Shown here in pieces: positions 11,741 to 59,060 of a DNA stretch of 64,000 nucleotides. Both the position numbers and the translations under genes were made by a program. Within the stretch, counting starts at the first letter, position 1. Each line of letters begins with the position of its first letter. The stretch is from Patellaria atrata CBS 101060. Its lineage: Eukaryota > Ascomycota > Dothideomycetes > Patellariales > Patellariaceae. The stretch covers positions 758,666 through 822,665 of the forward strand of contig MU006098.1 in NCBI GenBank assembly GCA_010093705.1. The letters are read 5' to 3'. The notes beneath the pieces were generated by a model. It saw only the letters and a program-made list of their open reading frames with translations, did no database searches and was not told the DNA's origin.

Positions 11741-14055
11741 ATGTACGACCTTATAATCATCGGCGCAGGTATCTCCTCTCCGCATTACCCTCTCCAATAA
11801 CCCCTCCTTCACTTCCCCGCTCAACACCCCTCAATTTACTCTGAGCGCCAATTTTTCAAGTATTACTCTCCAAATACAAACATGGCCCTCGAAGCTCTCC
11901 TCACATGTAACGAGTCCAACAATCATGTTTCTTTTCATGATCATTACTCCCCTCTAACGTCTTGGTGACAAGCGTCTGTGAAATGTTACGTCCCAGATAC
12001 CACCCTTAAAGTATACCTGCTCCAAAATATTCATTCAATTGTTACTCCCCCGGAAGGATTAAAATTCACATGTGTCACTAGCCTAAAAACATTATGCTCC
12101 AGAATTATCACTTTTGAGAAGTGTTACTCTCTTACGAACACAATTTCCGCAAAACACTACATTCTTAAACATGATTTTCTCAAATGCCCCCCACTCCCGA
12201 GCCTTTCTCTTCTACTCAGAACCCAAAAACCCTTAATACGCAACTCCTTCTCCCTTCCCTCCACTAACTCTCGACAGGGCCCGCCGGTCTAATAACCGCA
12301 AAAACATATCTCCAGGCCTCTCCCACCGCCAGAGTCCTCCTTCTTGATTCTTCCAACACCCTCGGTGGTACGTGGTCACAAGACCGCCTGTATCCACATC
12401 TCCTCGCAGAGACCCGACATGGGCATTTCGAGTTCTCCGATCTCCGCATGGGGACCGAGGGTGTCAATTCCGACGGAACCGTGAGCGGGGATGCTATACA
12501 TGCGTACCTGGTGCGCTATGCGGAGAAGTTCAATCTTTTGAAAATTTTGAGAAACCAAACGAAGGTCATTCGGGTACAGAGGAAAGAAGGAGGAATGGGA
12601 TGGTATGTCGGGATCGTTCCAGTTAATGAGCAAGGGAAGGAATTAGGCGACGGCGAAGAAGTTCTCCGGGCGGAAAAACTCGTCGTCGCGACGGGAATGA
12701 CGTCGCACCCTTTTATCCCCTCAATCCCAGACTATGGGTTCCGGGGTCAGATAATCCATTCGAAAGAGATGGGCACAGAAACGACGAGGGAGCTACTGCG
12801 CAATGAGAAAATAAAAGCGGTAGTTGTGTACGGCGGCTCTAAATCTGCTTTCGACGCCGTGTACATGCTACTCAAAGCCGGCAAAGGAGTCGAGTGGGTT
12901 ATAAGACACGGAAACGGGACTGCGAATATGACACCCCTCACAATATGGGGGATGCCGACATCTCGTGCCTCTGCCACGCGCATCTGGGGTCTATTCTCCC
13001 CCTCTATCTTCGCAGAGGATAGTTGGTGGAAGCGATGGCTACAATCCAACCTCGTCATAAAGGGATACTGGAGATTCATGACTTACATGGTACAAAGGCC
13101 TGCACAGTACTGGAAAACGGAGAATGGTAGACGGCTAAGACCTGATATGGGATACGACAATTTGTTTTATAGTCCTGCGACCCAGGGGGTCTCAAATCAT
13201 CCCGAGTTCTGGGATATGGTACACAATGAAGAGAATGTCAAAGTGTGGAGAAATAGCATCCTTTCCTACGAAGAAAACAGTGTCATACTAGACAATGGCA
13301 CACAGCTCCCAGCGGAGCTAGTTGTCCTAGCAACCGGCTGGAAAGTCAAACAGAATTTATTCTCCGATCAAGATGCTCAGGCTTTAGGGTTACCTTCAGA
13401 AGCTCGGTTCGACGCGGAGACACGATCCAAATGGAGCAAGCTGAACGGAGACGCAGAAAAAGAGATTCTGCTTGAATATCCATCTCTGAGAGACTCACCA
13501 ACTGGAACCCTAAGTAGAGAAGAGAATGATTATTGTTTATATAGGTATCTCATCCCCTCTTCCTATCTAAACGACGATAGATCGATCGGCTTCATCGGAT
13601 TCTTACGTACAGCATCAAATCCAATGGTGTATGAAGCGCAAGCGTTATGGCTTACGGCGTACCTACTAGGGGTGCTAAATGTACCTTCTCAAGAAAAGAG
13701 AGAACGTGAAGTCGCCCGCTCAAACGCTTGGATGTGGCGACGTTACATGTCGGGCCGAAGAATGCCTTTTGCATTCTTCGATTTTATATCCGTAAGTCGG
13801 TCTTCCGAACCGTTGTCAATGCCAACGTTCCTGACTGGTGAATTTTAGTACGTAGATCTACTCTACAGAGACTTAGGCATCAATACCCGGAGAAAGAGTA
13901 ATATTTTAGCAGAATTATTCGGCCAGTACCAGCCGAGGGACTATCAAGGTGTAGTCGATGAGTGGTTACAGAAAACTCGGAAGGTGGAAAGAGTTCAAAT
14001 GCACAGCAACAAAGCGGGCAATGATCCCATAACCACATTAACAAGATGTACATAG
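11741..14055 (+). CDS. FAD-dependent monooxygenase (FMO-like), cluster tailoring enzyme
   Basis: Flavoprotein of the FMO / Baeyer-Villiger-like class that uses NADPH and O2 to oxygenate a small molecule. Exons 11741-11768, 12278-13791 and 13849-14055 join in phase to 582 aa. The first exon (28 nt) encodes MYDLIIIGA and one base of the next codon; the join completes the FAD motif GAGPAGL. Also seen: LGGTW near residue 42, a second dinucleotide site VVYGGSKSA, and the C-terminal LATGWK typical of FMOs. The first intron is 509 nt, long for this genome, and splits the FAD motif. It sits between the SDR and the stand-alone ER on the same strand, which supports co-regulation with the PKS. The substrate cannot be read from sequence. 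Confidence 0.9.
11769..12277 (+). repeat. oversized FMO intron with a loose repeated motif
   Basis: The 509-nt intron inside the FAD motif carries four copies of a TTACTCYC-like motif (near 11862, 11943, 12041 and 12122) spaced about 80-100 bp apart. Similarity outside the core is weak, so this may be an old, decayed tandem repeat or chance. The intron ends in a good branch site (CTAAC) and CAG. Confidence 0.25.
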
Positions 14056-14811
14056 GTCCTTCAAGGGTGGAGTGAGGTGTGGTGCGTATAACAATATAGT
14101 CCCAGACATATGGTGTCGTTCAAAGCTAGGTTGTTCGCGAATAGGAGTGAGAGTAAAGCGGAGCTAACCGAATGTGGAAGTAAATGCAGAAGCGCTCTAT
14201 ATGCGCTGTGTAACTTCAACAATATTGTAAAAAGATGCGTCTGGACTGAACTTTTGGAATTTGCCAGAGTGGCAGTGTGACCATCGTACGTCGTGGTCAT
14301 CAGGATCATGCACATAGATTGGGGGACCTTGGAGAGTCGGGTAGCATTCACGAGGGGAGAATTTCTCCTACGGGACAGAATGTTGCGTCATAAGGGAATC
14401 AGTTCATACTACTACGATAGAAAAATGTCGTCGCTGTTGAAACTGAGGCTCATGGAGAAGTTGCTGGTAGTCAACAGCTTAATCTCAAGAAGCGTTTACT
14501 CTAGATAGTTGACGAACTGATAAACACTTTTTGCTTACTGTACTCTCGTGACACAGATTGAAGTTTACCATCAGTTTGAAGCACCGATTGTCTTTCCACT
14601 TTCTGTTCTGTTCAGTTTGCTGTTCAGTTCAGCTGTGCTTCCATCTATCCGCTTCCTCGACCACTCCGCCCTCAAATTGCCCTACTGTTACCCCATAGAC
14701 CTCTTAATTGAATCGTGCAAAGGTGCTGCGTGATATCACAGTCCGAACTATCTCAGGTCATACCAGTCTATATTCAGTAATACAATATCAATTCAACATT
14801 GTGCATCTCCA
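14056..14811. other. intergenic, upstream of the stand-alone enoyl reductase
   Basis: About 755 bp with stop-rich frames on both strands. It contains short GTTCAGTT-type repeats near 14600-14635. It should include the promoter of the reductase gene; I recognise no regulator site. Confidence 0.5.
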
Positions 14812-15858
14812 ATGAAGGCCATTGTATCAACCGAGCCAAACACCGCCTCCCTCATCAACAACCGTCCACTCCCTCGCCTCAGAGACGACTACATCCTCGT
14901 GAAAGTCAAAGCCGTCGCGCTAAACCCTACAGACTGGAAACACATCGATCTAACCACAACATCAGGAATCCTCTACGGCTGCGACTACGCCGGCGTGGTA
15001 GAAGATATCGGAACAGGAATGACAAAGGACTTCCGCAAAGGCGACCGAGTATTCGGCTTCGTGCACGGCGGAAACAGCGCCGAGCCAGAAGATGGCGCCT
15101 TTGCGGAATACATCGTGGCGAAAGGAGATCTGCAGATGCGTATTCCAGACGGCATGAGTTTCGAAGAAGCGGCGGCATTTAGAGTCAGAGTCACGAGTGT
15201 AAGCCAGGGATTATATCAAACGTTGGGGTTACCTCTCCCGGATGATGGAAGGAGGACTACGGAGTCAGAGATACCGATTCTGGTTTATGGGGGGTCCACC
15301 GCTTCGGGGATTCTAGGGATCCAGTTCGCACGATTATCTGGATATGCACCGATTGTCACTTGTTCTCCGCATAATTTCGAGTTGGTTAAAGAGTATGGCG
15401 CTGTGGCAACCTTTGACTATGGAGACGATGACGCCGCTGAAGAAATACGGGAGTATACTAATGGGAAACTAAAGCTTATTTGGGATACCGTCTCTATATC
15501 TTGGAGCGCTGAGTTTTGCGCCAGTGTTATGTCCCCGGAAGGGGGGAAGTACGCCTCTCTCTTGCCCATGCGAATAAGCGCGGAGAATGTGGAGAGTACA
15601 ACGACGATGGCGTATACAGTATTTGGCGAGGACTGGAAGATGGGTTCGATGTTCTTCCCAGCGAAGAAGGAGAATTTCGAGTTTGGGAAAACGTGGTTTG
15701 CTTTGGTAGAGGATTTGATTAGCAAAGGAAGGATCGGACCGCATCGAATTGGCGTAGGGGAAAAAGGACTGGAGGGGGTGTTAGATGGGCTGCAACTGCT
15801 TAGAGATTCGAAGGTCAGCGGAAAGAAATTGGTTTATAGGATTGAGGACACTCCGTAA
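14812..15858 (+). CDS. stand-alone (trans-acting) enoyl reductase, LovC-like MDR family
   Basis: Medium-chain dehydrogenase/reductase without catalytic zinc, 348 aa, one exon. Known relatives (LovC type) reduce the alpha-beta double bond of chains held on a PKS whose own ER is dead. Seen: N-terminal substrate-binding fold with NPTDWKH near residue 40, [12 protein letters not shown] near 61, and the cofactor region VYGGSTASG near 163. Cys/His zinc ligands are absent, as expected. The C-terminus ([11 protein letters not shown]...[19 protein letters not shown], broken here) matches the family. The pairing with the neighbouring PKS, whose ER lacks its NADPH motif, is the best functional argument. 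That it works with this PKS is inferred from position. Confidence 0.88.
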
Positions 15859-28962: not shown

Positions 28963-30685
28963 ATGAAATTCAGGAGACGACACTCTCCGTTATTAATCCT
29001 ATTACTTTCTACTCTAGCTATATCGCGCGCTATTGATATTGAAGATGTAGCAGACAAGACTTCTTTACAACAAGTCGCTCGAGACGCCTACCCCCCAGTT
29101 GCTACCTTGCCTGCACTATCTACCACCACGAGATCTGATGTAGGGACGAAAGATGCTCCTGTAGATGGTCAAGATGGTAAACCCCACGCAGGGCCATGGG
29201 TTGACGGCTCCACAGAGAAGCCTACAAAATTAAGCCCTGCAGTTGAAGACTTGGGATCAGACTCTACAGAGAGGACAAAACCCATACCGCTTTCAGATTT
29301 TAATGAAATGGATCCAGATGAAGCTAAAGAAGCTCTTAGGGGCTCTCCTAACCCTGACGGGGTTATGGATGACCTGAACAGAGAAACACCAAGGAAAGGG
29401 ACTACTGGGACAGAGGGGGGAGTAAGTGAGAAGGAAAGGGAAAGAAAACAACAAGAGGAGGAGTCTGGCACAAAGATTGATAGAATTCCTGATCCCCCGA
29501 AGGAGGCGCCTCCACTACCCCTCAGTGAGCAGGAAAGAATAGGGCTTGATGATGAGGAAGATGAAGATGAGGAGAGGCCAAAAGGTGCTGTGGGGCTAGA
29601 GGTATTTGCAGACCACAGCGTCCAACCAAGATATATAACTTATGTGGTGCTAATATTCAAAACCATAGAAACCCGCAGATCTCCCTGATAAGACCCACGA
29701 TATCCCCCTACCAGTTCCCCCAACACTACCAAATGATGAGGAACAAGGGACTACTCCCAGTACACAAAAACCGACCTCTGATGAAGAAGATCCCTCGGGA
29801 GTTATCCAGCCGTTCCATTCCTTCGTACTCTCGTTAGCCATGATTCTATTTTCGGAAGTTGGTGACAAGACCTTCCTTGTAGCCGCCCTTATGGCTATGA
29901 GACATCCTCGTCTGGTGGTTTTCTCCGCTGCGTTCTCTGCTCTTATTGCCATGACAGTGCTCTCAGCCGTACTGGGACATGCAGTTCCAACACTTCTTCC
30001 AAAACGTCTTACTAACCTTGCAGCGGCCATTCTCTTCTTTGTCTTTGGAGCAAAGCTTCTACGCGAAGGTCTTGCAATGAGCCCTGATGAGGGCGTAGGT
30101 GCGGAAATGAAAGAGGTCGAAGAGGAACTTGAAGAGAAGGAGCACCTCGCGCGCAGAAACAGCAGAAGACGATCATCCATCTCCCCGTACGCCCTTGAGG
30201 CCGGAAGAGGTCGCAAGTCCAGATCACATAATACCGGTCTCTCTGCTCCGCGCAGTCCTTCGTCCTCCCCTTCACGATCACCTTCTCCGAATGGCAGTTC
30301 TGTCACCAATGCTATTAACGGTCTCAACAACCTCCTTTCTCTCTTGCTTAGTCCTGCTTGGGTCCAGACATTCATCATGACGTTTCTTGGGGAATGGGGT
30401 GACAGGAGCCAGATCGCTACTATAGCAATGGCGGCGGGTCAGGACTACTGGTGGGTGACCGGTGGTGCGATCAGTGGACACGCTGTTTGTACAGGTGTTG
30501 CTGTTCTAGGTGGACGTGCCATTGCAGGAAGAGTGAGCATGCGCATGGGTAAGCAGTTCCCCGCAGTCATATCTGTATAACTTTTTGATACGGCTACTAA
30601 TAGTAATATAGTTACTCTCGGAGGCGCAGGTGCTTTCCTAATCTTCGGTCTCATTTACCTAATTGAAACAATGTATTCCGAGTAG
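28963..30685 (+). CDS. GDT1: Gdt1-type Golgi Ca2+/Mn2+ transporter (UPF0016/TMEM165 family)
   Basis: Moves Ca2+ and Mn2+ into the Golgi in exchange for protons; needed for glycosylation and Ca2+ homeostasis in yeast and human relatives. Exons 28963-29601, 29669-30548 and 30612-30685 give 530 aa. Seen: signal peptide (residues 1-23), a long hydrophilic Pro/Asp/Glu-rich segment (about 24-250), then the two family signatures SEVGDKTFLVAALMAMRHPR and GEWGDRSQIATIA in two membrane blocks separated by a basic Ser/Arg loop. The last exon supplies the final membrane helix (GAFLIFGLIYLIE). The N-terminal hydrophilic part is much longer than in yeast Gdt1. Confidence 0.92.
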
Positions 30686-32719
30686 ACGACTTATTTCCGC
30701 CACGCATGCGTTTCTAGGATATCTCCTTCGTATTAAAGACGGAAAGAAGCATAAAGAGCGTGTTCGCCTGTTTAGCGTCGCTAGATGTCTGTATCACTTT
30801 CATACTAATTCTCTGTACTATATTTCATCATCGAAAAACTAGGAGTCAATGGTATGATTACGGACCGAGCGAACATGTACCAGTATTTGGACGGAGTTCT
30901 CTGCTGAGCGGGAGGACGTGAAGAATCTCTCGAGATTGCGTTTATTTAAGTAGTGATGTTTAATACATGATGACAGATCTTTTTCTTGAATCGAACTTCG
31001 AAATAACACCTGCAACCTAACTGGAATCGCGTATTGAATATGGACGGGGCTATTCCCCTGATTGATGGTGACTTACTCATTCGGCACATCACGTGTAGCT
31101 CTAAAATTAACCTACCGTAATTTAAATTCTTCCTTTTTCCATCTCGCGACGCAAATTCCCACATTTCAAAATTCCCCCCCAAACACTTGAAAGACACTTG
31201 AAAGTTGAAGAAAAACGAAAAAGAAGAATAAAAATTCCATCGGCAACGTTGCGACTCAGAAACCCATGTTCTAGACCCCGGTGGCTCTCAGCCCTTAACG
31301 GTCTGACCCGCTTGCCCCTGAGCAAAAGCGAACACGCTTTTCCTAGGTCTGCTCTTTTGGGATGCTCAGCTGCGCCCATAAAGATAATGGAGTTTGCAGT
31401 TCGAGTCTTCGATAAGGAGTAGAAATGCAGTGTATGCTGATAAAATGGACTACAAATGAGGCTAATTCTAAGTTTACTGGACGGTACAATTGCGATCCAG
31501 ACAGAGAAACTACTTGGAGATTGGAGGAATTGTTCAAGATTTGAGAGTTCTGCACGAACTTGAGGTTCTGAGATGCTTGGGATGTGTTTAAAATCGGGTT
31601 ACGGTGAGTGTGATTTGTTACCAGTTTGGGACAGAAGCTCATGCATCGTGTTTTTGACAGGAGCTTATCTGCTTATGCTGTCTATTATATAAGCTTTAAG
31701 GATGAATATTGACGCAGTTTCAGAGACCAACAAGCGAGAATTGTGATTCCGAGTCAGCAAGCTTTAGTGCTCTGCTGATTCAAACACACATGGCACTATC
31801 ACAAGTAATGGAGCACTTGTGAAGTTTCATGAACGAGGTGAACCAAATTCTGATGTCCAAATAGCTGGATTCTCCACGATCTAGCCACGAGGCTCCCTCC
31901 TACTTGGAATCATGTTCGGGAGCTTATGGTTATCCCGGACCCTCTAAACGACAATCTTGCACGAGAACGTCCTAAGAGCATGTCGAACTCAACCGGCATC
32001 AAAGGTGAATGTGTGCATAGCGCCCGTTGCGCGAATCCCTCGATCCGATATAGGGTTCTTCAGAGGGTTGTGCACAGTGCACTTCTCTTTTCGGAAAGAC
32101 AAGTCCCAAAGCGGTAGTCCGGGCGCGAAAAGCCACATCAAAACAGTTGTTCGGTGCGATTCGGCTCGTCACGCTTTGTCTCAAGCTCCCAGCTCGTGCT
32201 TGTTTCAAATCTTTTCGGCTTTGAGTTTCTCGTCTTCTGATGCTTACCCTTCATGGCGTAATAGGTGCTCTTTGATAGGCAGCTTCGATAGAGAGGCTGT
32301 CTAATAAGGGGGGCATGATTGGTCAGTTCTTCTTTTGTTGCTCTACCGTATCTTAGCGCTTCGACACAAGAGCATTACTGAGGAAAATGTTGTCAAGGTC
32401 AGTACCGTAAGTCAGGTACCGAAGTACCACTATCTCCTCGATTTCAGTCTTCCATATCAATGAACGCACAGCATAGGGGTGAAGAAGGGGGATAGATATA
32501 TGGACACCTTCCCATCCTTGCTATCTAATTCCTCTCCCCTTCGCATTTTACTATCTCTTACTTTCTCTTCCTCTTCCCGGTATCTCGAGCATAGTTTTGC
32601 TCATCCACTCATTAGAAGGATATTGTCGATTGTACAATATCATACTGGCATAGTTCCAGTTCTTACACTCGTTCATTTCATTTTTACAATAATATCCATA
32701 CACCCTAATATATTTCACC
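30686..32719. other. intergenic, no gene seen
   Basis: Two kilobases without a convincing frame on either strand. A pyrimidine-rich stretch at 32500-32590 and the TATA-like sequence near 32700 belong to the peroxidase promoter. Confidence 0.5.
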
Positions 32720-33907
32720 ATGAAGTTCACCACCATCTCTTTACTTCTCCCTTCCCTCCTCCACTCCGCAGCAGCATGGCCACATATGTCCTCCGACTCC
32801 ACCCTCTCCCACATTCACCATAAACACCACCACGCCGACTTCCTCTCCGAGCTGAGCAAGCGAATCGCATCCCCCGAACCCCAACCCCAAAGCGGTAACG
32901 ACGGCGACGACAGTCCCGGGCCCCTAATTGGCGACCTCGTCAACGGCGCAACTACCCCCGTCGGCCGCTCCGTCACGAACATCCTCCAGGGGACTGAGTC
33001 CGCCGAATCCCACGAAGCAGGATACCGCCCGGCCCCCTTCATGAGCCGGGCCTGCCGCAAGGACACCTGCTGCATCTGGTCGCACATCTCGCGCGCCTTA
33101 ACCGCGTCATTCACGGGCCGCGGAGGCCGATGCAACAAATGGGCGCGTGCCGCCATCCGTCTCGGCTTCCACGACGCAGGGACATGGTCAAAGAGTCTCG
33201 CATCAAGGGGCCAGGACTTCGGAGGCGCAGACGGATCCATTGTCCTCAGTGGACAGGAAAAGGGGAGGCCGGAGAACAAAGGCCTCGAGGAGATCATCGA
33301 GATGGCGCGGCGCTGGCAGCGGATCTATGGGGTAGGCATGGGGGATCTGATACAATTTGCCGCCATCCACGCCGTGGTTACCTGTCCGCTCGGTCCACGA
33401 ATCCGCTTTTTCGCCGGTCGGAAAGATAGCTCGCGGCCCGCGCCCGATGGGCTGCTACCCGGTGTCTTCGCCTCGGCTGACAGTCTCATCAACCTGTTTG
33501 AAGATAAGACGATCAGTCCGCACGAGCTGGCCGCGTTATTAGGCGCACATAGCACGTCCAAGCAGTTCTTCATCGATCCACGGAAGAGCGGGGCCCCGCA
33601 GGATAGCACTCCCGGGGTGTGGGACACGCTGTTTTACAACCAGACCACCGCGGGAAAGACGCCGAGCCAGGTATTCAAGTTTCAGAGCGATGTGGTACTC
33701 GCCCAGGATCCGAGGATCAAGAGCGAGTGGGAGAGCTTTGCGGGCCAGGGGGGCCAGGAGCATTGGAATGAGGATTATGCGAGGGCATATACGAGACTCA
33801 GTCTCTTGGGGGTGAATAATATTAATGGCCTTACGGAGTGCTCGAAGGTGTTGCCGGCGGCGAAGAGGGGGTTTAGAGCGGGGCCGATGGATTTATTTGA
33901 TGATTGA
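32720..33907 (+). CDS. secreted heme peroxidase (plant/fungal class II-like)
   Basis: Extracellular heme enzyme of the plant-type peroxidase superfamily, oxidising phenols or other aromatics with H2O2. Single exon, 395 aa. Signal peptide MKFTTISLLLPSLLHSAAAW; a His-rich and acidic propeptide ends at LSKR, a kexin-like site. The catalytic core starts about residue 105: distal helix with Arg and His in RAAIRLGFHDAGTW, Ca-site-like GGADGSI, proximal His in ALLGAHSTSK, and a late Asp-rich turn. Cys residues in RACRKDTCC and elsewhere fit the fungal disulfides. I do not see a clear Mn site or surface Trp, so calling it a ligninase is not supported. GC-rich coding sequence compared with its flanks. 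Confidence 0.88.
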   Translation: MKFTTISLLLPSLLHSAAAWPHMSSDSTLSHIHHKHHHADFLSELSKRIASPEPQPQSGNDGDDSPGPLIGDLVNGATTPVGRSVTNILQGTESAESHEAGYRPAPFMSRACRKDTCCIWSHISRALTASFTGRGGRCNKWARAAIRLGFHDAGTWSKSLASRGQDFGGADGSIVLSGQEKGRPENKGLEEIIEMARRWQRIYGVGMGDLIQFAAIHAVVTCPLGPRIRFFAGRKDSSRPAPDGLLPGVFASADSLINLFEDKTISPHELAALLGAHSTSKQFFIDPRKSGAPQDSTPGVWDTLFYNQTTAGKTPSQVFKFQSDVVLAQDPRIKSEWESFAGQGGQEHWNEDYARAYTRLSLLGVNNINGLTECSKVLPAAKRGFRAGPMDLFDD

Positions 33908-37050: not shown

Positions 37051-40000
37051 GAACTTGTTGATTGCGCGTTTTCGGGCAATGTATGGGGTGTCATCTCAAT
37101 GTATATATTCATTCAAGCACTTAGTTTCTGCGGTGGTCAGCACGTCCTTAAGGTAGAGTCCAGCATCGCAGCTCAAAATCACAGCAAAATTTTCATGGAG
37201 AAGCTACTCCTGTTACGAAATGATGACATAGTCAAAATCTCACACTTAAAATTTGACATCTGCTTCATATGGCAGATCTAATCGCAAGTTGATATTTTAA
37301 TTCCAAGCCCGCATCGTACAAATTGGCTCTTTCTTTCTCCTCCTCCCTTAGTCGACTCTCTTTTACTCACATTGATAGAGTGTTTCCTTGACTGGATTGT
37401 TTCACAGGGGACCCACAATATCTAGTGATGGCCATAGACAATAATTTCATGAGCTTTATCTGATAGACGAAATGAGGGAGGATAGAATTGTTTTCACCCA
37501 GTGAAATAAATTCGAAATGCGTCATATCGACTTCCGGTTGTTATGGGATCTGGAAGCATCCGAATCATTAGATTCAGGCGCAAGGCTAGAGTATTGGGAT
37601 GCCTAACTTCTAATGTAGCTAGAGTGATAGGTGTCACCATGCACTTAGGAGATATTGGTGGTATGGTTAATTGAAAGCTAGAATCCAAGAAGAAAGTAAA
37701 GGAGAAAAGGTCAGAGGAATGATGAAATCAAGTGCTCTATCGAATCTGCAGTTGAAAGTTGAAGTTGATAATAGCTTGAAGCTAAGAATGAAAAGGCTAG
37801 TGTCTGATTACTAAGGTAAACTGTCTTCCATTGCTTTTGTCCCCTCTTCAATGAAAGATTGAAAGTCAACAACTCTTTGAGTGTCTATCTCATTGACAAC
37901 TACTGGTTCGCTATTAGAATCATCCTGGCATGAACTCAGGAGACGGAGTCTTCGGACCGGTGTTTGATGAACTTCAACCCTGTCAGTAAAGCTGCGCAAT
38001 ATGCATTCAATATGCTGCAAGCACTTTCGGAGACTATGATGACATGTATCCAAGCTTTTGTGAAGCCGTAGAACATGATATCTTCGGTACTTGGAGGTGA
38101 ACGTACGGTCAAAGTTCAGAGGCCACACTTGCCGAGTATTTCGCGGTCATAGAAGCTTTCCGGCCGATCATTACGGATGAAGACGGCGACTGGACCCAAC
38201 TGCGCGTTCAAAAGAACAAGGACTTGCCAAAAAACGGGTAATGGTCGAACAAAACAAGATGACTGTCAGCCTAGATCGCCATCGGTGTAGTTCATTGTTA
38301 CGGTATCAGCCTCAGATTCCGGACTTCTATCTACTTCTCAATGAAGATTTCGTTACGACCACCCCGAATACTTGGTGAGTAGAAGATCTGTCATAGTAAT
38401 ACGGCAAGTTGATCTGGTTATGGCCCTATAGAGCGTGTCGAAGTTAACTCCTCTCCTGCTATAATTTGAACTTCTCATGCCTCTGTTGCTATACACCTAT
38501 CGTACATTCACCACGGAAGCCTCAAGTTTGAAGTATTATTACCTCTTGAAGATATGTACGTTTTAGGTAGGCAACTTTTTCTACAGTATCGCGCACCAAC
38601 AGTACTTCTCTCGTTTCGTTCATCAGCTAAGCTCATGCAATCATTGGTTAAATCCAGTATAAGTCAATTTAGAGGGAACCAAACTTGGTGAAATTGAGCC
38701 GAAGAGGTTCAATGAAGTATAACAAATGATAATTATGTTTGTGTCGATATTTACGACTTTTCTGACTACTCCAGGACTCCCTTGATGTCCAATTTGTGTC
38801 GCTTTCACCATAACGCACTATCCATAACCGCTGAACCTCGTATTGTCATGCACATCTCTGAATCCTTATTAAGGAGAGTATACGACAAGGAAAATGATAC
38901 AGATCGTGGCTGAGATAAGGAATACCACGAAAATGCGGGCCCATTCATATAGTGCATGTGTGGAAAGCTGAAGCGTGGCGTCTTCCGAGTAGGAGTGGCC
39001 TATGTAAATGTTAGATATTGACGATAAATCTTAATATACCTAGGCGATTTACAATAAGCGTTTCCTGTGCAGGAATCGGTATTACTGTTGTACGGAGACC
39101 TTGAGGGTTTATCGAAATATGAGTATATTAAAGGCGCTGTATATAGTTAGGATATATTTCTTACGATAGAAAGAAATTAGAATCCTTACAGTTTCCGGTT
39201 GAGCTCTTCCTGGAGTAGATTGAAGACGCGGTTGTTTAGACATGATATCCTTTCGCGTTGATTTCCTCTCGTCACTGGCTTTAGCGTTTGTTCCTCTGGG
39301 GTATAGAATATATACGAGGGAATATACGTATAAAGGAAGGTAACGAAGGAAGGCTATGAAGGAAGGTAACGAAGATAAGAATGAAGGGAAAGCATGCTAA
39401 TTTATGTCATGTAGAATCGTTGATAAAATCCTAAGTGATGCTCAACTTGGGAAATTAACTAATGTTCTACATAGTTCGTCCGGAATTTTCTGCCTTAACG
39501 TGACTAGCGTTCCTCAGCTGTATATCTTATCATTTCTGCACAACATTATCAGGACTTAAATACGTTTTGGCATACATGGATGCATAGTCCGTCTTGAGAG
39601 CAAGCGTGCAGTAAGTTATGAAAGAATTCTGGGACGAGAAGGGCGATAAGCATAGAGGCTTCTTCTTAGTCTCTCGACTTTTCACTCAAATATATAGAAT
39701 TCTGATACAGGCTAGACATAAGTGATGCGTTTCTTTAGAGTTGCAACCTCACCGCGCTGAGAACCGCAGATACTGGCTTTAAAATTTGAAGTTGTTTATT
39801 CAGTTTCATTATCAGGAATTTGTTTTCAAGCTGGGTAAGTTCTCCATCCCTCTATCTTTTTCTCTTGCATCTTCGATGACCATAGAGGTGAAACAATCCT
39901 CGATTGAAAGCCATCAGGATATTTCACCCGCTTCAACTGAGCTGAGATCGGGTATCTAGAAAGATCCTCAGGATCACACCCAATATCAAAGTCATCCATC

Positions 40001-40900: not shown

Positions 40901-43900
40901 CTAAGGAATCCCCACGCCGCCAGCAGTGACCGTCACAGTCAGAGCGTCTGAGCACGGCGTGTTCGCCGAAGTTGACGGCCTGCTTGTTATCGTGCTTGTA
41001 ATGAAAGTTGAAGTTACCGTGGTAGCTTGAATGTCTGATTAGTTGAGATACATAGGATAAGGATTGAAAGCGGAGTAAAGTCCGCAAGGGTGCACTCACA
41101 GGTAGGGATTGGAGTCGATGTCACTGTCGTCATAGTGGCTAGATTTACATATTAGTAAAGCTCGTTTAAGAGGAATAGGCCAAAGAGCAGTCAAGTCCTC
41201 CCATAAGAAAGACTGGACAGGATTTCCCACGTTATAACGTGGCCCATCACTGTACGCTCGCTTTCAAAGTGTCCCCCGACTCTCCTGCATACGACTGTCA
41301 ATAACGTATAGCTGCGGCCTAGTCATACATACGTCTTGACTGTACAGACATTTGGAGGCCATCCGCGATCAGGAGCTAAGAATCTGCGAACAACCGTCCA
41401 ACAAGCGTATAGTGGCTGGGGCGTTGCTAACAGCAATAAAGGGGTATCAAAAGTTTACTCACTAGTTGGGAAAGGAGTTGAAGTAACTGTGGTCGTAGTA
41501 GCTAAGTTTATGCATTAGCTTGCTCTCTAGGGGACTAATTTTCTAGTCGGCTATCGGTCTGAGTAATGAAAGATACTTACTTGTTGGGATAGGAGTAGAG
41601 GTGATTGTAGTAGTAGTGGCTAGGTTCACGCATTAGCCTCTTCTCCCCAGCATAGATAACATAAAGCGAGTGTATCTTTCGTGAGAAACAAAGTCCACAA
41701 GGATTCACGTACTGGTAGGAATAGGAGTTGAGGTAATGGTACTTGTGGAATAGATAACCGAAGTGCTGCTGGAGTTTGAACTCGAGCCAAAGCCTGAACC
41801 TGTATCTGATGTTGAACTGAAGGCAGAGGTTGAACTCGAAGCTGCTGCTGAGCTCGAAGTGGAGCTTGACGAGGAACTGGTCACGGAGGTCACTGTCGTG
41901 GAGTGTGTACGCTCGGACAAGGGAACAGCGATTGTTTGTGTGATCGTAACAGCCCCTAAAGAAAATTGTTAGTGATTTGGAAAGAGGAGAAGCATGTCTC
42001 GAGATTTGAGATCATACCGACTACAGTTACTGTAGCTGGCGGTGGAGTTTGGGTTACGGCGGGTCCGGGAACGGTCTGGGTGACAGCCCCTCCGGGTACG
42101 GTTAAAGTGACGGAGCCGCCGGGTACAGTGATGGTGGCAGCTGCTGGAGTTTGGGTTATAGCCGGTCCTGGGATTGTTATGGTGACAGAGCCGGCCGGAA
42201 TTGTCACGGTAGCCGCCGCGGGGGTCTGGGTCACGGCGGGTCCCGGGACAGTAACAGTAATGGAACCGGCAGGAATGGTAAGGGTAGCGGCTGCCAGCGT
42301 TTGGGTCACAACCGGCCCGGGAACTGTCTGGGTGACTGGGAAAGTCTGGGTTACGGGTTGACCCGGTACGGTCACAGTAATAGAGCCGCCGGCAAGAGTT
42401 TGGGTGATAGGTTGACCAGGAACAGTTTGAGTTATGGGTTGACCTATTGAGAGGTTGGCAAGGCGTTAGGACAAGCTTATTGGCACAAAATTCTCACCTT
42501 GAACTGTCTGTGTTTCAGCTTGCCCAGGAATTGTGACAGTAACATAGATAATTTGCGGGCCGGCCCCAGAGGTGCTAGAATAAGTAGAAGTAACCGTTGT
42601 CGAAGCTAACGCGGGATTAGTCTAAGGGTTTAGATGGTAGCTCGGGACAAAACTTACTAGTTGTAGCTGGAGAGAGAAGATCATATTAGCGACATTTTCA
42701 TAGGAAGGGTATGAAAAGTCTTAAGCGAGAATGTACTCACTCGTAGCAGGATAGGTTGTAGTTTTTGCTGTTTGAGCTCCATTAGAATTACATTGTTAAA
42801 GATGATATCAGGAAAACTTGCTGGTTGTTGTCGACGCGTAGGTCGTCGCTAGTTAGAATTAGCTTAGACCCAGAGTCTCATTCTCCAATAGCAAACTTAC
42901 TTGTGGTGGTTGGAACATAATTTGTGGCTATAGAAGTCTGATTAGCTTCGTTCTTGGTTGAAGAACTCTCGGAATGCCTTACTAGTGGTTGTAGGCGCAT
43001 ATGCTGTCGCTAAGAGGAAATTAGTCAGGCGTCATCTCCCCTATTCTGGTAGAGAACTTGCTCGTAATGGTTGGAACATAAGTCGTTGCTATAAAAACTT
43101 CATTAGAGTCATTTTTCGTGAAAGAGCTCTCAAGTAAACTTACTTGTCGTTGTGAGGATAAATGTTGTCGCTAAATAGAAGTTAGCCTATATTTCATCCT
43201 TGCTTCTCTGATGAGGAACTTACTCGTAGTTGTTGGGACATAACTCGTGGCTATTATGGTTGATTAGTTCTGTTTCTAGATTAGGAAGGGACAAACTTAC
43301 TGGTTGTTGTAGGGATAAATGTTGTCGCTGAGTAGAAATTAGCATAGATTTTTGACTCTCATTCTTCTACAGGGAACTTGCTCGTAGCGGTTGTATTGTA
43401 CGTGGTCGCTTCAAGCAAGAAGTCAGCCTTATCCTTTATTCAGGGAATTGAGAGGGACAAACTTGTAGCTATCGGAGAAGTCAGCGAATTTGATCCACCA
43501 AGTGTAATCGTGTAGACGCATGCTGAAAACAAGGGGAGAAGACAGCAATTAGTTTCTATTTTATGGGACGCGTGCTCATCTTGGACTCTACTCACTCGTC
43601 TGAGGATCCGGTGAAAGTCCAGTTGCTAATTCTAGATTTAGCACTCATTACCAAAAACAAGGTTGAAGTAGGACCAACTCGTCGTAGCTAGAATAAATGT
43701 CAACATACCAACACTTCCGTAATTCATACTAAATGTACTAACTTGTTATAGGGTCTGCAGCAGTTGCTTATCCTAAATTTAGCACACATTCTTGAGCAGG
43801 AGTCAAGTAGAACAAACTTGTTGTGGTAGTCGTCGTTGCTTTAGAAGTAGATCAGCTTTCAAATCAGGTGGGATCTATCATAGAAGGAGCCTCACAAGTT

Positions 43901-44550
43901 GTGGTTGTCGGAATTGCCGTAGCTGGATTTCGAAAGTCAGTCTACTTATGTACATCCAAGATTCAAGATCAACGAACTTGTGATTGTCGTAGATGTCGTA
44001 GTTGTTGCTGATATATTCCATTAGTACGTTATATTAATCTACGATGAAGGTTGTCTTCATCATGATGAAGAGGTTAAAAGATGAAAGACCTACTCGTAAA
44101 ACTTGGAATAGCAGCAACCTTGATAAATTTCATCAGGGAGTTGTTGATAGCGTAAGAGCTGGCTGACGTCGGAAACGCCGACTTTTGCTGGCAATTCATC
44201 GCACCAGGTGCGTTTCCGATCTGCCCACCTGCGCACTGGGAACCGCGAAGTGTGCAGTTGCCCGCACACTGTTCGAAATTGAGGCCGGGAAGATCTTGTA
44301 GAGTGCTGTGGCCCGTGATGTTATAACATTCCATATAGTATATCCCTCCCTGGGGTGGTGAGTAGTATTGGCCAGTGAATCCGGGACATGATTGTTGAGT
44401 CGTGACCTGTCTTTTTGCGAGGCTCAACAAGTGATTGTATCGTGCAACCTCTTGATGATATGGTGCTGCAGATACAACCCCGGCACAAAAGAGATACGCA
44501 AGTAAAGTTGGAAGCCAAAACTTCCACAGTGGACTTCGGGCGCCAATCAT
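40901..44550 (-). CDS. secreted mucin-like protein encoded by about 25 exons, 21 of 27-60 nt or less unusual size
   Basis: Predicted cell-surface or secreted glycoprotein, about 642-652 aa. Exon 1 (to 44094) encodes a signal peptide (WLPTLLAYLFCAGVVSA), a kexin-like site LAKR, and a six-Cys domain resembling fungal PAN/apple domains (NFEQCAGNCTLRGSQC). Then come 17 short exons (9-60 nt) encoding a Thr-rich stalk, exons 42605-42498, 42443-42018 (25-residue PGPAVTQTPAAATVTIPAGS repeats) and 41955-41713 (Ser-rich), three 39-nt exons (41619-41581, 41501-41463, 41138-41100; TTTTT-ITSTPIPT type) and the last, 41025-40901, ending GVGIP. Every intron falls after the first base of a codon, so all internal exons are symmetric. 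Start 44550 is preferred; 44580 adds ten residues. No GPI signal seen. The exact set of very small exons needs transcript support. Confidence 0.75.
42658..42666 (-). other. 9-nt micro-exon
   Basis: CTACAACTA between a CCAG acceptor and a GTAAGT donor, adding Thr-Thr-Thr in phase. A second candidate of the same size, CTACGACGA, lies at 43679-43687 between TTCTAG and GTTGGT. Both are inferred from splice signals and phase. Confidence 0.5.
42741..43408 (-). repeat. tandem array of nine 80-bp exon+intron units
   Basis: Nine 27-nt exons begin (low coordinate) at 42741, 42822, 42901, 42983, 43062, 43144, 43224, 43301 and 43382: spacings of 81, 79, 82, 79, 82, 80, 77 and 81 bp. Each encodes nine residues of the pattern TT-x-Y/F-x-P-TTT. 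Introns of 50-55 nt are related too (AGTAGAAATTAG-like motif beside the acceptor). Two sub-types alternate: one with TTTATCC-like centres, one with TATGTTCCAAC-like centres, so the higher-order unit is about 160 bp. Confidence 0.8.
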
Positions 44551-45461: not shown

Positions 45462-46518
45462 TTACATTTTTGCTTCCCTGATCTTCATACTGTCTATGCG
45501 GCGACCCTCATCCGCCTGTTCGGCAACTGTCAAGTCTGGAAAACGTGCTGGCATAATTCTCCTTGGTGTCGTGCCCGGCACAAGACTATAATGGGAAAAG
45601 TCCCGCACGCTAACCTTGCGTAAGAAGTCTTCGTCGAGTTCGAGACAACCGTTAACTTGTTCTGCGGGGGCCTTGAGGATGGCTAGAATCGCATCTGAGA
45701 AGATAGTCTGAACTCTCATATTAGCTTAATGTTCGCAGAAGAGTTTGTGAGGCTCACCGCTTTCCGAAGATCCTTTTGGATGGCTGGATCAGCGGTTGCA
45801 GCAGACTGGATTGCAACGGCGGGCCAGATGCTGGTAATCGCCATGCCAGTTCTATTATCGCGCTCAAAATCCATACCGAGACCTTTAGTAAGTACAGACA
45901 TGCCCACCTTACCAATAGCGTACGCAGTCTTTCCTCTGAAGAACCTTGAATATATTGGCGGACTAACGACCACAATCCTACCTTTCCACTCATTCCTCCT
46001 CCACCACTTCAAACAGTTTTGCACAGTGGCGTAAAGTCCCTCTACATTGACCTTTTGCATAAGGTGAAATCTTTTCATCGGTGTGCTCTCCACAGATGCC
46101 CACCAGATCGCCCCAGAATTATACACAAGCACGTCCAGTCCGCCGTAAGTCTCAATTGTCTTCTGCACCATGCGTTCGATGCTGTCGGGATCTCGAACGT
46201 CGACCTGGACGGCAGTGGCTTCGTCACCGGCTTCGTGAATCTCGCGTGCGACGGTGGTGATGGTGGAATGTGAGGAATTGGGGTCTGGAGGAAAGGGATG
46301 GAAATGGTCAGTTTGAGAGGAGGTGGATTTTGCGGCTACGACAACTAGAGAATTGTTAGATATAGTATTATATCATTGAAGATAAAAGGTTTGAAATGCG
46401 AGCAATGTGAAGGAGTATACATACCCGCATACCCATCCTTTGCGAGATCAACCGCGACTTGCCTTCCTATGCCTCTTGACGCGCCAACAACTAGAGCAAC
46501 GCGTTTCTTTTCAGTCAT
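45462..46518 (-). CDS. short-chain dehydrogenase, HSDL2-like
   Basis: NAD(P)-dependent SDR, 308 aa from exons 46518-46425, 46344-45758 and 45707-45462. Seen: GASRGIG cofactor motif near residue 13, VQVDVRDPDSIE, the active-site Ser in VVVSPP and catalytic YAIGK. The NAG motif reads NSG (VYNSGAIWW). The long segment after the catalytic site and the sequence KRFHLMQKVNVEGLYATVQ resemble HSDL2-type SDRs, often peroxisomal; the C-terminus (REAKM) is not a clear PTS1. The substrate is unknown. It is divergent from the kappa-class GST gene, sharing a 436-bp promoter. In-frame ATG at 46536 would add six residues. Confidence 0.88.
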
Positions 46519-52511: not shown

Positions 52512-53681
52512 ATGTTGGATCTGTCTATCCCTCTCTCAACTCTGGTTGCGACGAGATTCAGAGGAGCAAAGGCTACCCCAAGCCTGATATTCTCCAAAAC
52601 CCAACTCACAGTCATTCGCACCTCATCAGGCGTTCCGGTATGTAAGTAGGATCGGCACGAGTCCGCTCCCATCACCTAGATTGACAATCCATACTGCAGT
52701 TTCAACTCCTCTATTGCCCCGCATTGGCGAAGAAAGAGAAGAAAGATGAACTGGACAAGAACAAACCCAAGAGCCCAATGCCTTACCGAGACCCATTTGA
52801 TATGCCGCAAGGACATTTGTTTATCGCAGAAGTTCCACAGACCGATCCCTCTCATGTCCTGGTTCTGAATAAGTATCCGGTGATCCAAGAACATTTTATA
52901 ATTACGACGAAAATCAACAAGCCTCAAACACACCTTTTGGAGCCGATCGACCTTGGCCTAACTTACAATTGTCTCGAAGCTTGGGAGGAACACAGTATTC
53001 CTCTGCACAGGAAACGTCTTTTCGCCTTTTTCAACTCCGGTCCGCTCAGCGGAGCCAGTCAGCCGCATCGGCATTTACAATTCCTCCCAGTCGAAAGTAT
53101 GACTCGAGGTGCTGATTCGAAAGGCTGGCACGTCCTCGCCGAATCCCTTGGAGATTCTCTAGCAGAGAAAGTAGCCTCAGGGGAAGCAGGTCCGCATTAA
53201 AATTGCGCCTTCATACCACCCTATACTTACTTTATTCCCAGATCCCCTAGTACCCCAATGCTCACCTCGTCTCCCCTTCCGCACATACGCCCTCCACGTC
53301 CCCGAAAATCCTACCCAAGATCAACTTTACACCATCTACATGAAGCTTTTCCGCATGGCCGAGTCGGCTGTGCGCGATTTCATTACCACAAACCCCGGTA
53401 AGCTCGAGCTCCACGATACCTCGACCGGCAACTCGCCGATAAGCTACAATCTCGCAATGACCCGGAATGTCATGATCATATGTCCGCGTCAGAATGGGGG
53501 CAAGCATTTCCAAACTAAGGAGGGTGAGGTTCTGGGATATATCGAGCTCAACGGAACCATACTGGCGGGTACGGTCATGGTTAAGTTGGAGAAAGAGTGG
53601 GAGCTCATGAAGAACGATCAGTCGCAGTTGGACATGCTGCTTTCGCATGTTGGATTGCCTCAGAAATGGTCGCACGAGTAG
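52512..53681 (+). CDS. APA2: ATP adenylyltransferase / Ap4A phosphorylase
   Basis: Breaks diadenosine tetraphosphate to ADP and ATP using phosphate; HIT-superfamily, cytosolic. Exons 52512-52637, 52700-53189 and 53242-53681 give 351 aa. Seen: the N-terminal FQLLYCPALAKK, PFDMPQGHLFIAEV, HVLVLNKYPVIQEHFII, the catalytic loop SGASQPHRHLQFLP (HxHxQ), and the C-terminal domain SYNLAMTRNVMIICPR with ILAGTVMVK. These match the yeast Apa1/Apa2 family; which paralogue cannot be said. The second intron uses an unusual donor, GTCCGC, but phase and the conserved DPLVPQ after it support the join. Confidence 0.93.
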
Positions 53682-56600: not shown

Positions 56601-59060
56601 CTGATGACTACTCTAGCTCTAGGTGAATCGTCAAGCCTCGGGGTTCTCAGCGCGACTGGGAACGATGGAGTGGATAGAAAAAGAAGAAGAAGAAACATGT
56701 GGCTCAAGAAAGTCTTTATTGCCGCAGCTCGGCAGCTGATGAGTCATACGACAAACGACAACCGCCTTGACTCCGAGCAGTGGGGTTGCCGTAGCAACCA
56801 AGTCAGGTGCGCAGCAAGACAGATAGAACCGCCCCTAAGTACTGCGGAGTATAGTACTCATGATGCTATGATCTCCTACATCAGTATATCAATCTGAGTA
56901 GGGGAATACCTTTCCGGTCTTGGGATTACTATTCTCGAATTCTTTCCGAGTATTGCATTGAAACGTTATCTAGTCTCCACAAGATTCTCCACGCCAAAAT
57001 CTCGTGCAAATTAGATAAACAGGGTTTGTAACACATAGATTCTTGAAAACTGATCGTGGAAGCCGTCTCGAATAGTTTGGGGGTTCAAGGGCGTTATTGC
57101 GGGCGAAAGGTTATTTTTCGTTTGAAGTTTCTATCAATTCCTCCTTGTACTGGCCAAACACTTGTTGTACCAGAAGTATTGCTGCGATAACAGCCGAAGC
57201 TCATATCGGACTTAGTCATTCATCCTTAACATCAGAGTAAAGGGGGATACAAGATGACTGAACTGTACAAGACTTACTGAACTGTACAAGGCTTACTGAA
57301 CTGTACAAAACCGGACAGTACAAGATCTACTGGACTATACAAGCTGACCAAACAATCAGCACACCTAAACAGCCATCCCAACCTCTATTCAATTACAGTA
57401 CACCTCCTATTTGAGCATACATACCTCGCCAGTCACGTTTCTATACAAGGCCAGTGAATAATCCTTCATGATCAAGGAGGTCTGAGATCGGCAGTCTTAC
57501 TATGCGCCGGAAAATCGCTATCCAGACGTAGAGCGTGTACAGTGGGCGAAGGTTCCATACTCCAATATGTGATGACGGAGGGATAGTACTGTGTTCAGGA
57601 ATACCGCAGCCTACCCGACGTCACATCTTCTTCTATGGTTATTCGGAAACTTTAAATTTGCAGAGGTATCTTTGTCATTGATGAGCCAAAATCACTGCCC
57701 CGCGGATGTAGGGTTCATCAGGGGGTAAACACTTTCTACCATGCGTGGTTCTGGATTGATCTACAGCATGGGAAGTGTACGTTCACGGTGTGTATCGCTT
57801 TGACTGATTGATAGTACCTTTGTGGTTTCGTTGCGGGTGGATGCTTGTGCTTGTGTTGTAAACTTCTTCCTTCACTCGGTAGTTGAAGGGGTCAACGAAT
57901 GGTTCGGAGGAGAAGAGCGCGAGGAAAGGTAGGTTCGAGATGTCTGTTGGCGTCTCCACCATCGTACCTATCATCAGTCTTGATCCTGGCCGCTAGTATT
58001 CAGACACGTGGGAAGAAAAGGGGTTTGAAAGGGAGCGACGTACGATGGGAGCGACGTACGATATGCAAGAGGCAAATCTTCAAGCAGTATCAAGGGGTAA
58101 GGTAGGGCAATGCATGTCGGACTGAAACATATCAACATAAGAGCGGTTACGGAGTCTAGAAGCCTGGATGAGATGTCTGAGTGGGAGGAAGTCATGATAC
58201 CTTCTATTCATCCGTCTTATTCTTGATTCTAGCCCCCTCATTAGCACTCAATCAAATAACACTCCACAAGACATGCAGACTCGGCAATCCACCGCAACGT
58301 AAGGGAATGCATGCGAAACAGGGAGACGATAGGAAGGAGTATGGCAGAGGCGAGACATGACTGGATGAGGGAACAATGGTGGTTCTAGACTCCAGGGTGA
58401 AATAGGAGGCATGGTTCGTGCAAGGCACCGCTTCCATCCAGATATTTACAGCGATAGAGGTAAGGAAAGGGTAAACGAGAGTTCGAAAGCGACAGATAAA
58501 CAGATGTGTCTACTTTTCGATGGGTGGCAGAGTACTTGAATGAACAGTCAAAGGTACAGGTGCGGCTGATAGACGCTCGTATTCGGGTTAGGGGGTATAG
58601 AGGGGGGTGCAGAAGGTCCTAAGGCTGACGCTGAAGCTGAAGCTGAGGCGCAGTGTAAGGGAAACTAACTCGGGACCAAGGTAGAAGCTATCGGGATAGA
58701 TGTAAAGGTCATTGAAATAGATGATCACTTTGAAATATGAAGACGAGAGATTGTTGCAGAGAAATAGGATGCCATTGCATCAACTATCTAGGCTAATGCG
58801 TCCGGCGCAAAAATTCAGCTGCCTCCCTAAGAGACAAGCAGAAAAGACACTAAACAATATCATGATCCATTAATTCCGATCCCAATCCTTTGTCTTGCCT
58901 GTAGATCCCAACCATGAGTATCATGAATCGTGACAAAACCGTGCTAGCAGAAAAGAGAGCAAATGGGTACTTGTGTCAAGAAAGCAAATCGCATGAAAAC
59001 CACAAGCAAGCCGACCACCGTATTAATACATCCTGTTGCACATCGATGGGAATAGATAGT
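53682..59060. other. gene-poor region with a coding remnant
   Basis: More than 5 kb without an intact gene. At 54536-54992 (minus) two overlapping frames read like the inner part of a fungal F-box-type protein (SAMFRGGHLVRFKSMKHAVD, then QIGIGQMDRMKNWVDTL), with no start region; a remnant is likely. Elsewhere the frames are short. Stop-rich AT-biased DNA at 55000-56900 suggests old, mutated sequence. A small tandem repeat is listed separately. Confidence 0.5.
57257..57345 (+). repeat. tandem repeat, about 19-bp unit
   Basis: About four and a half copies of ACTGAACTGTACAAGRCTT, the first three nearly exact and the later ones diverged (ACTGGACTATACAAGCT). Confidence 0.8.

What the first reader, a model, noticed from the sequence alone, without database searches (positions are those of the whole stretch)
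40901..44550. A surface-protein gene built from an all-phase-1 series of tiny exons
Parsing splice sites on the minus strand gives 25 exons whose lengths (30, 27, 21, 24, 9, 30, 60, nine of 27, 9, 108, 426, 243, three of 39) are all multiples of three between the first and last, with all 24 introns after codon position 1. The summed length gives one open frame of about 650 aa. Fungal genes usually have few introns and exons of hundreds of bases; here any exon can be skipped, gained or lost without a frameshift, so stalk length could vary by splicing or by unequal recombination. The exon calls are mine and rest on splice consensus plus phase.
Basis: partly seen in the sequence, partly recalled or inferred. 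Interest (0 to 1): 0.92.

Follow-up and report, generated by a model that had tools for sequence, protein, structure and literature searches.

The report
Fungal gene of duplicated tiny exons
A fungal gene for a probably secreted, threonine-rich protein appears to be cut into 25 pieces, many only 9 to 39 bases long and all joined at the same point of a codon, because small exon-plus-intron blocks were copied in tandem; genes built like this are known from parasitic worms, aphids and ciliates.

Summary
A splice-site parse blind to reading frame recovers 18 of 24 introns; 21 of its 22 internal exons of 120 nt or less are multiples of three (two of the 22 are spurious), against 101 of 273 in control stretches. 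The tiny exons evolve as coding sequence: across eight 27-nt copies, codon positions 1, 2 and 3 differ at 0.17, 0.22 and 0.69. No transcript data were available.

The array is a tandem duplication of exon-plus-intron DNA. A 306-column self-alignment (E 1.8e-25) puts exons 10-13 in register with 12-15, introns included: the copied block there is a two-exon unit of about 160 bp (54 coding nt). Uniform phase then follows largely by inheritance. Silent sites are much diverged, so recent gain or loss of units is not shown.

Best reading: a secreted protein with a six-cysteine N-terminal domain on a long Thr-rich, probably O-glycosylated stalk, built by symmetric exon duplication. It works like schistosome micro-exon, aphid bicycle or Tetrahymena LRR arrays, without evidence of membership in any. 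Splice isoforms are untested.

The parts
40901..44550 (-). whole coding gene, 25 exons and 24 phase-1 introns, 642 aa
44094..44550 (-). exon 1 (457 nt): hydrophobic signal-like N-terminus, KR site, six-cysteine domain (C55, C75, C95, C99, C106, C120)
   Evidence: no Pfam match
43978..44007 (-). exon 2, 30 nt, Thr-rich
43896..43922 (-). exon 3, 27 nt, TTAIPTTTT
43818..43838 (-). exon 4, 21 nt, STTTTTT
43743..43766 (-). exon 5, 24 nt (weaker call)
   Evidence: not found by the blind parse
43679..43687 (-). exon 6, 9 nt (weaker call)
   Evidence: not found by the blind parse
43596..43625 (-). exon 7, 30 nt
43463..43522 (-). exon 8, 60 nt, carries one Cys
43382..43408 (-). exon 9, 27 nt, TTTYNTTAT; start of array
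43301..43327 (-). exon 10, 27 nt, TTTFIPTTT
43224..43250 (-). exon 11, 27 nt, TTSYVPTTT
43144..43170 (-). exon 12, 27 nt, TTTFILTTT (in register with exon 10)
43062..43088 (-). exon 13, 27 nt, TTTYVPTIT (in register with exon 11)
42983..43009 (-). exon 14, 27 nt, TTAYAPTTT (in register with exons 10 and 12)
42901..42927 (-). exon 15, 27 nt, TTNYVPTTT (in register with exons 11 and 13)
42822..42848 (-). exon 16, 27 nt, TTTYASTTT
42741..42767 (-). exon 17, 27 nt, divergent
42658..42666 (-). exon 18, 9 nt, TTT
42498..42605 (-). exon 19, 108 nt
42018..42443 (-). exon 20, 426 nt: repeats of about 25 aa (VPGPAVTQTPAAATVT type) with no intron between them
41713..41955 (-). exon 21, 243 nt, Ser-rich, ends with a copy of the 13-aa unit
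41581..41619 (-). exon 22, 39 nt, TTTTTITSTPIPT
41463..41501 (-). exon 23, 39 nt, TTTTTVTSTPFPT
41100..41138 (-). exon 24, 39 nt, TTMTTVTSTPIPT
40901..41025 (-). exon 25, 125 nt with stop; no hydrophobic C-terminal tail by eye
42894..43351 (-). tandemly duplicated exon-intron block: 43351-43055 aligns with 43194-42894 over 306 columns, exons 10-13 on 12-15, introns included
   Evidence: E 1.8e-25
41139..41462 (-). intron 23, 324 nt, exceptional length (the other 23 introns are 50-93 nt)

Best explanation
A real spliced gene for a secreted protein: N-terminal signal-like segment and KR processing site, a small six-cysteine domain, then a long Thr-rich stalk broken by Val-Thr-Gln repeats and a Ser-rich stretch. 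The stalk grew by tandem duplication of genomic blocks made of 27-nt (and, later in the gene, 39-nt) exons with their introns, in the main array in two-exon register. Each copy brought a phase-1 intron on both sides, nearly always splitting a Thr codon (A|CN), so copies could be added without breaking the frame. Splicing by intron definition (short introns recognised as units; recalled for fungi) would let 9-27-nt exons be joined constitutively. Shown here: structure, phase, coding constraint, homology of exon-intron units. Inferred: secretion, an O-glycosylated stalk displaying the cysteine domain, constitutive splicing.
For: One frame of 642 aa with every intron phase 1; blind parse, 21 of 22 internal exons of 120 nt or less multiples of three versus 101 of 273 in controls; third-position excess in eight 27-nt copies and in three 39-nt copies (0.154, 0.051, 0.590 for positions 1, 2, 3), for the 27-nt copies 0 of 20,000 permutations; 23 of 24 introns carry an in-frame stop and the other, of 74 nt, shifts the frame; exons 9-17 are each exactly 27 nt while introns 8-16 vary from 50 to 55 nt; introns 8-16 resemble each other beyond shuffles (z 7.4), as do introns 21, 22, 24 (z 4.6) and 2-6 (z 3.1), while introns 1, 7, 17, 19, 20, which carry the same splice signals, do not (z 0.0); self-alignment in two-exon register, exons 84 of 108 and introns 127 of 184 identical; junction codons 20 Thr, 2 Ser, 2 Gly.
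Against: No transcript, no relative and no fungal genome could be examined. Introns 4-6 and the 324-nt intron 23 are weak or unusual calls, and the share of in-frame exons falls at laxer thresholds. The two-exon register is only moderate when introns alone are permuted: 67 of 2000 permutations reach it. Intron cores blasted one against another give only two pairs with E below 0.05. Identities in the self-alignment are those of a BLAST-selected segment. The cysteine domain has no Pfam match up to E 10 and its single-sequence model is unusable (pLDDT 35). Secretion and glycosylation were not run through any predictor.
Confidence: 0.74

Rival explanations
1. Isoform generator: the symmetric tiny exons are alternatively included, so one gene makes many stalk lengths, as proposed for schistosome micro-exon genes.
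For: Every internal exon is a multiple of three in one phase, so any skip keeps the frame; three GC donors, and alternative acceptors six and fifteen bases inside exons 14 and 23 that the blind parse chose, could weaken some junctions. A regulated microexon is reported in Trichoderma (PMC11121469, passages), and microexons are suspected of promoting alternative splicing in Phanerochaete P450 genes (PMC1184071, passages).
Against: The symmetry is expected from duplication alone. Of the two acceptors of intron 4, the proximal AG would bring an in-frame TAA (read from the sequence). No transcript data.
Confidence: 0.25
2. Contingency locus: unequal recombination between the repeated exon-intron blocks keeps changing the stalk length among strains.
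For: Tandem homologous blocks, introns included; repeat-length change in the yeast adhesin FLO11 alters its effect (PMC3899988, passages).
Against: Silent Thr sites differ at 96 of 137 comparisons over exons 9-16, the random level (0.701 against 0.696), and at 12 of 24 between copies two apart; no array is called by Tandem Repeats Finder here. The copies do not look recently homogenised.
Confidence: 0.2
3. Introns as insulation: breaking repeat-coding DNA with fast-changing introns lowers slippage and recombination, so a long repetitive stalk stays stable.
For: Silent divergence is slightly higher in intron-split 27-nt copies (112 of 168 identical-residue codons differ) than in four 15-aa stretches of the uninterrupted exon-20 repeats (39 of 67). 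That introns in repeat-coding DNA could lower the rate of new variants is suggested in PMC6162428 (passages).
Against: Small, uncontrolled difference between repeats of different age and composition; one gene only; intron-split 39-nt copies give 37 of 59, hardly above exon 20.
Confidence: 0.2
4. Independent intron insertion (introner-like elements) into an existing repeat-coding exon.
For: Introns of one group resemble each other.
Against: Similarity runs through introns and exons in register, best at every second unit; the introns sit at the same place of each unit; no copies elsewhere in the window at E 0.01; introns 1, 7, 17, 19, 20 show no similarity.
Confidence: 0.06
5. Splice-pattern illusion in noncoding or decayed repeat DNA.
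For: The splice matrix alone finds many chance introns anywhere (control mean 11.5 per 3650 nt at the same threshold).
Against: Multiples of three, codon-position pattern, one open frame joining large exons at both ends.
Confidence: 0.03

Closest known systems
Schistosome micro-exon genes (MEGs)
   Same: Many very small symmetric exons; products with a signal peptide, found in secretions (PMC4350168, passages)
   Different: Here exons of 36 nt or less are 16 of 25 exons but only 393 of 1929 coding nt; that paper says MEGs appear restricted to platyhelminths; alternative splicing is not shown here
Aphid bicycle genes
   Same: Many small internal exons, almost all starting at codon position 2, the same junction phase as here (PMC9168663, passages)
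   Different: Insect family of putative gall effectors; sequence relation not tested; Thr-rich low-complexity stalk here
Tetrahymena LRR genes with arrays of 90-bp exons
   Same: Tandem arrays of exons of one fixed length in one intron phase; the authors propose unequal crossing over (PMC6564038, abstract and passages)
   Different: Phase 2 introns, leucine-rich repeats, thousands of genes; here 27 and 39 nt, phase 1, one gene seen
Yeast FLO-type adhesins with Ser/Thr-rich tandem repeats
   Same: Ser/Thr-rich repeat units prone to O-glycosylation (PMC3899988, passages)
   Different: FLO repeats have no introns between units and end in a GPI signal (both recalled); no GPI-like tail seen here by eye
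Microexons in Phanerochaete chrysosporium P450 genes
   Same: Fungal genes with very small exons (2-10 aa) and small introns of 45-55 bp (PMC1184071, abstract and passages)
   Different: Microexons scattered among P450 genes; the passages seen describe no arrays of duplicated exons of one length and phase
Trichoderma virens Xlr2 microexon
   Same: A filamentous ascomycete splicing a tiny exon of 20 nt (PMC11121469, abstract and passages)
   Different: One regulated microexon in a transcription factor, not an array, and not a multiple of three

Membership tests
Schistosome MEG | most of the coding region in very small symmetric exons | tested here: not met
   393 of 1929 coding nt lie in exons of 36 nt or less, 570 in exons of 60 nt or less; 23 of 23 internal exons are symmetric
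Schistosome MEG | signal peptide | not tested
   hydrophobic N-terminus seen in the sequence; no predictor run
Schistosome MEG | variant proteins by alternative splicing | not testable with these tools
   no transcripts
Aphid bicycle genes | many small internal exons starting at codon position 2 | tested here: met
   criterion from PMC9168663
Aphid bicycle genes | homology to bicycle proteins | not tested
   no bicycle sequence was compared; the window looks fungal
Tetrahymena LRR exon arrays | exactly 90-bp exons, phase 2 introns, leucine-rich repeats | tested here: not met
   27 and 39 nt, phase 1, Thr-rich
PAN/apple-type cysteine domain | match to a Pfam profile | tested here: inconclusive
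   no Pfam family up to E 10; Cys spacing C-x3-C-x6-C-x13-C (positions) resembles the apple pattern as recalled; model of pLDDT 35 not usable
GPI-anchored FLO-type adhesin | C-terminal hydrophobic GPI signal | tested here: inconclusive
   none seen by eye: the protein ends SDALTVTVTAGGVGIP; no predictor run
Introner-like elements | near-identical introns at many unrelated sites | tested here: inconclusive
   gene against window at E 0.01: hits only inside the gene; the rest of the genome is not held

The most novel reading that the evidence does not exclude
Filamentous fungi have their own class of symmetric micro-exon genes: stalk proteins whose repeats are each carried by a 27-39-nt exon copied with its intron, in the main array in two-exon blocks, either to make splice isoforms of graded stalk length or to keep repeat-coding DNA stable by interposing introns.
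Probability: 0.3. Interest if true: 0.8.

Novelty: new variant of a known kind. Interest (0 to 1): 0.6.

Why it matters
Arrays of tiny same-phase exons are documented in flatworms, aphids and ciliates. [quoted passage not shown] My searches turned up no fungal array of duplicated symmetric exons. A 24-intron stalk gene in a fungus lets both routes to variable stalk length, splicing (steps of 27 nt) and recombination (steps of 54 nt), and the opposite idea, introns as stabilisers, be told apart by long-read cDNA and a strain survey. Gene finders may well miss or mangle such genes (inference).

Tried and rejected

Rejected: extra exons inside intron 23 (the blind parse makes 51- and 54-nt pieces there, both with stop codons); the proximal acceptor of intron 4 (in-frame stop); chance or noncoding origin; independent intron insertion as the main cause. 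Ten paper searches were made; some searches were aimed at fungal micro-exon or exon-duplication genes and their listings showed no such array. One search found SP7 effectors, where the passages shown mention one conserved intron before the first repeat. The library holds open-licence papers only, so absence from print is not claimed.
Full report
Observation. 24 of 24 introns end in AG; 21 start GT and 3 (introns 9, 13, 16) start GC. 23 of 24 would bring an in-frame stop if retained; intron 24, of 74 nt, has none but shifts the frame.

Is it more than chance? Phase was built into that parse, so I used one that knows nothing of frame: a generic recalled splice matrix, introns of 45-110 nt, best non-overlapping set. 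Six thresholds were tried on the gene and three on the controls. At the strictest (13) it finds 25 introns, 18 of them those of the model, and 23 of 24 internal exons are multiples of three; counting only exons of 120 nt or less, as in the controls, 21 of 22. In 64 half-overlapping control stretches of the same window it is 101 of 273; in 60 shuffles of the region, 172 of 512. Intron numbers are 25 here, mean 11.5 and maximum 17 in controls, mean 16.1 and maximum 22 in shuffles. At thresholds 12, 11, 10, 9 and 8 the share on the gene is 23 of 26, 25 of 29, 25 of 32, 23 of 34 and 23 of 34, as chance introns enter, mainly in exons 1 and 19-21; controls at 11 and 9 give 274 of 727 and 416 of 1184. 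One search lists the differences at 13: introns 4-6 are replaced by two others, introns 13 and 22 get another acceptor, and intron 23 is split, with two spurious pieces (51 and 54 nt) that contain stops; leaving those out, 21 of 22 exons of any length or 19 of 20 short ones are multiples of three. With introns up to 330 nt allowed, 17 of 24 are recovered and spurious long introns appear. A scan of both strands for chains of 5 or more same-phase introns with short in-frame exons finds this locus alone; its chains are 12, 14 and 13 long in phases 0, 1 and 2, because Thr-rich exons lack stops in any frame, so that scan does not itself fix the phase.

What fixes the phase is codon-position change. 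Among the eight 27-nt exons 9-16, the share of differing pairs is 0.167, 0.222 and 0.687 at positions 1, 2 and 3 of the proposed frame; with exon 17 added, 0.241, 0.275 and 0.698; among the three 39-nt exons 0.154, 0.051 and 0.590. None of 20,000 column permutations reaches the first contrast. Exons 9-17 are each exactly 27 nt while introns 8-16 range from 50 to 55 nt. The tiny exons therefore look like translated sequence under constraint, in the frame that joins them to the large exons at both ends.

How it arose. Introns of the array resemble each other beyond composition: the mean global score of introns 8-16 is z 7.4 above shuffles, introns 21, 22, 24 z 4.6, introns 2-6 z 3.1, while the set 1, 7, 17, 19, 20 is at z 0.0; the branch site was left in these sequences, but it is present in the last set too. 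A self-BLAST of the gene aligns 43351-43055 with 43194-42894 over 306 columns, E 1.8e-25, placing exons 10, 11, 12, 13 on 12, 13, 14, 15, with 84 of 108 exon and 127 of 184 intron columns identical; another alignment, exons 10-11 on 14-15, spans 131 columns. The register is thus two exons with two introns, about 160 bp. Thr-codon silent differences by lag, exons 10-16, are 25 of 29, 12 of 24, 16 of 20, 10 of 16, 7 of 10 and 2 of 6 for lags 1 to 6, lower at even lags. Against this, the register from introns alone is reached by 67 of 2000 permutations, and single intron cores blasted on each other give only two pairs below E 0.05. Exon 22 with its flanking intron ends aligns to exon 23 at 78% over 72 bp, so the 39-nt exons seem to have been copied in the same manner, and exon 21 ends in a further copy of their unit. 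Junction codons are 20 Thr, 2 Ser and 2 Gly. Uniform phase is then mostly inheritance; the independent events are far fewer than 24, so a naive probability for '24 of 24' would be overstated.

Age. Over exons 9-16, silent differences at Thr-Thr sites are 96 of 137, equal to the random expectation (0.701 against 0.696). The array shows no sign of recent homogenisation, and Tandem Repeats Finder does not list it. This tells against active unequal recombination in this allele, though not against rare events. Four 15-aa stretches of the uninterrupted exon-20 repeats are slightly less diverged at silent sites (39 of 67, against 112 of 168 for the 27-nt copies and 37 of 59 for the 39-nt copies). That would suit introns as stabilisers of repeat DNA, an idea voiced in PMC6162428 (passages), but the comparison is small and uncontrolled.

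What it encodes. By sequence: a hydrophobic N-terminus, a KR site, six cysteines at 55, 75, 95, 99, 106 and 120, then a long tail with 184 Thr in the last 492 residues. No Pfam family matches the domain or the full protein up to E 10. The Cys spacing recalls apple/PAN domains; that is recalled, not shown. Exon 20 carries repeats of about 25 aa without introns. The C-terminus has no hydrophobic tail by eye. I infer a secreted, probably O-glycosylated stalk protein; no predictor of secretion or glycosylation was run.

Surroundings. The neighbours read as an ascomycete (inference): polyketide synthase pieces between 540 and 7849 with ketoreductase, dehydratase, methyltransferase, ketosynthase and acyltransferase matches, a haem peroxidase at 32717-33904, an SDR at 45719-46372, a GDT1 transporter at 29669-30577 and an Ap4A phosphorylase in two frames at 52685-53678. 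Their open frames run from about 170 to 690 residues, unlike the tiny exons here. The species is not known to me and the genome is not held.

Comparison. Many small same-phase exons mark schistosome MEGs (PMC4350168, passages), aphid bicycle genes, whose internal exons start at codon position 2 as here (PMC9168663, passages), and Tetrahymena LRR genes with 90-bp exons (PMC6564038, abstract and passages). In fungi, PMC1184071 (abstract and passages) reports microexons of 2-10 aa spread among the P450 genes of Phanerochaete chrysosporium, and PMC11121469 (abstract and passages) says functional microexons had not been described in filamentous fungi before its own 20-nt case and that work on fungal microexons is limited. 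The present gene works like the arrays of the first three but is not shown to belong to any: exons of 36 nt or less hold only 393 of 1929 coding nt, the Tetrahymena length and phase differ, and homology to bicycle proteins was not tested. DeMarco 2010, Levdansky 2007 and Romfo 2000 were not held; I know them from reference lists and recall only. That fungal introns are paired by intron definition, which would make 9-nt exons spliceable, is recalled; the only support seen here is the title of Romfo 2000.

Verdict. A well-supported and unusual gene structure, best explained as tandem duplication of symmetric exon-intron blocks. Whether it yields isoforms or length variants is open and directly testable.

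Noticed in passing
41139-41462 (intron 23): An intron of 324 nt among introns of 50-93 nt; it holds a perfect 16-nt palindrome at 41227-41242 and has no convincing copy elsewhere in the window (one 17-nt match, E 0.2). Possibly a small insertion.
   Followed up: partly
introns 9, 13, 16 (donors at 43381, 43061, 42821): Three GC-AG introns of 24, all GCAAGT, all in the array; the usual rate in fungi is recalled to be near 1%.
   Followed up: partly
42018-42443: Repeats of about 25 aa in one intron-free exon; a single-sequence model shows a row of short strands at low confidence.
   Followed up: partly
540-15855: Polyketide synthase pieces followed by SDR, FMO-like and zinc-type dehydrogenase frames: a likely secondary-metabolite cluster.
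   Followed up: partly
32717-33904: Haem peroxidase (PF00141) in a single open frame.
   Followed up: no
57248-57343 and 39333-39387: Short tandem repeats of period 19-34 and 13-26 bp.
   Followed up: no
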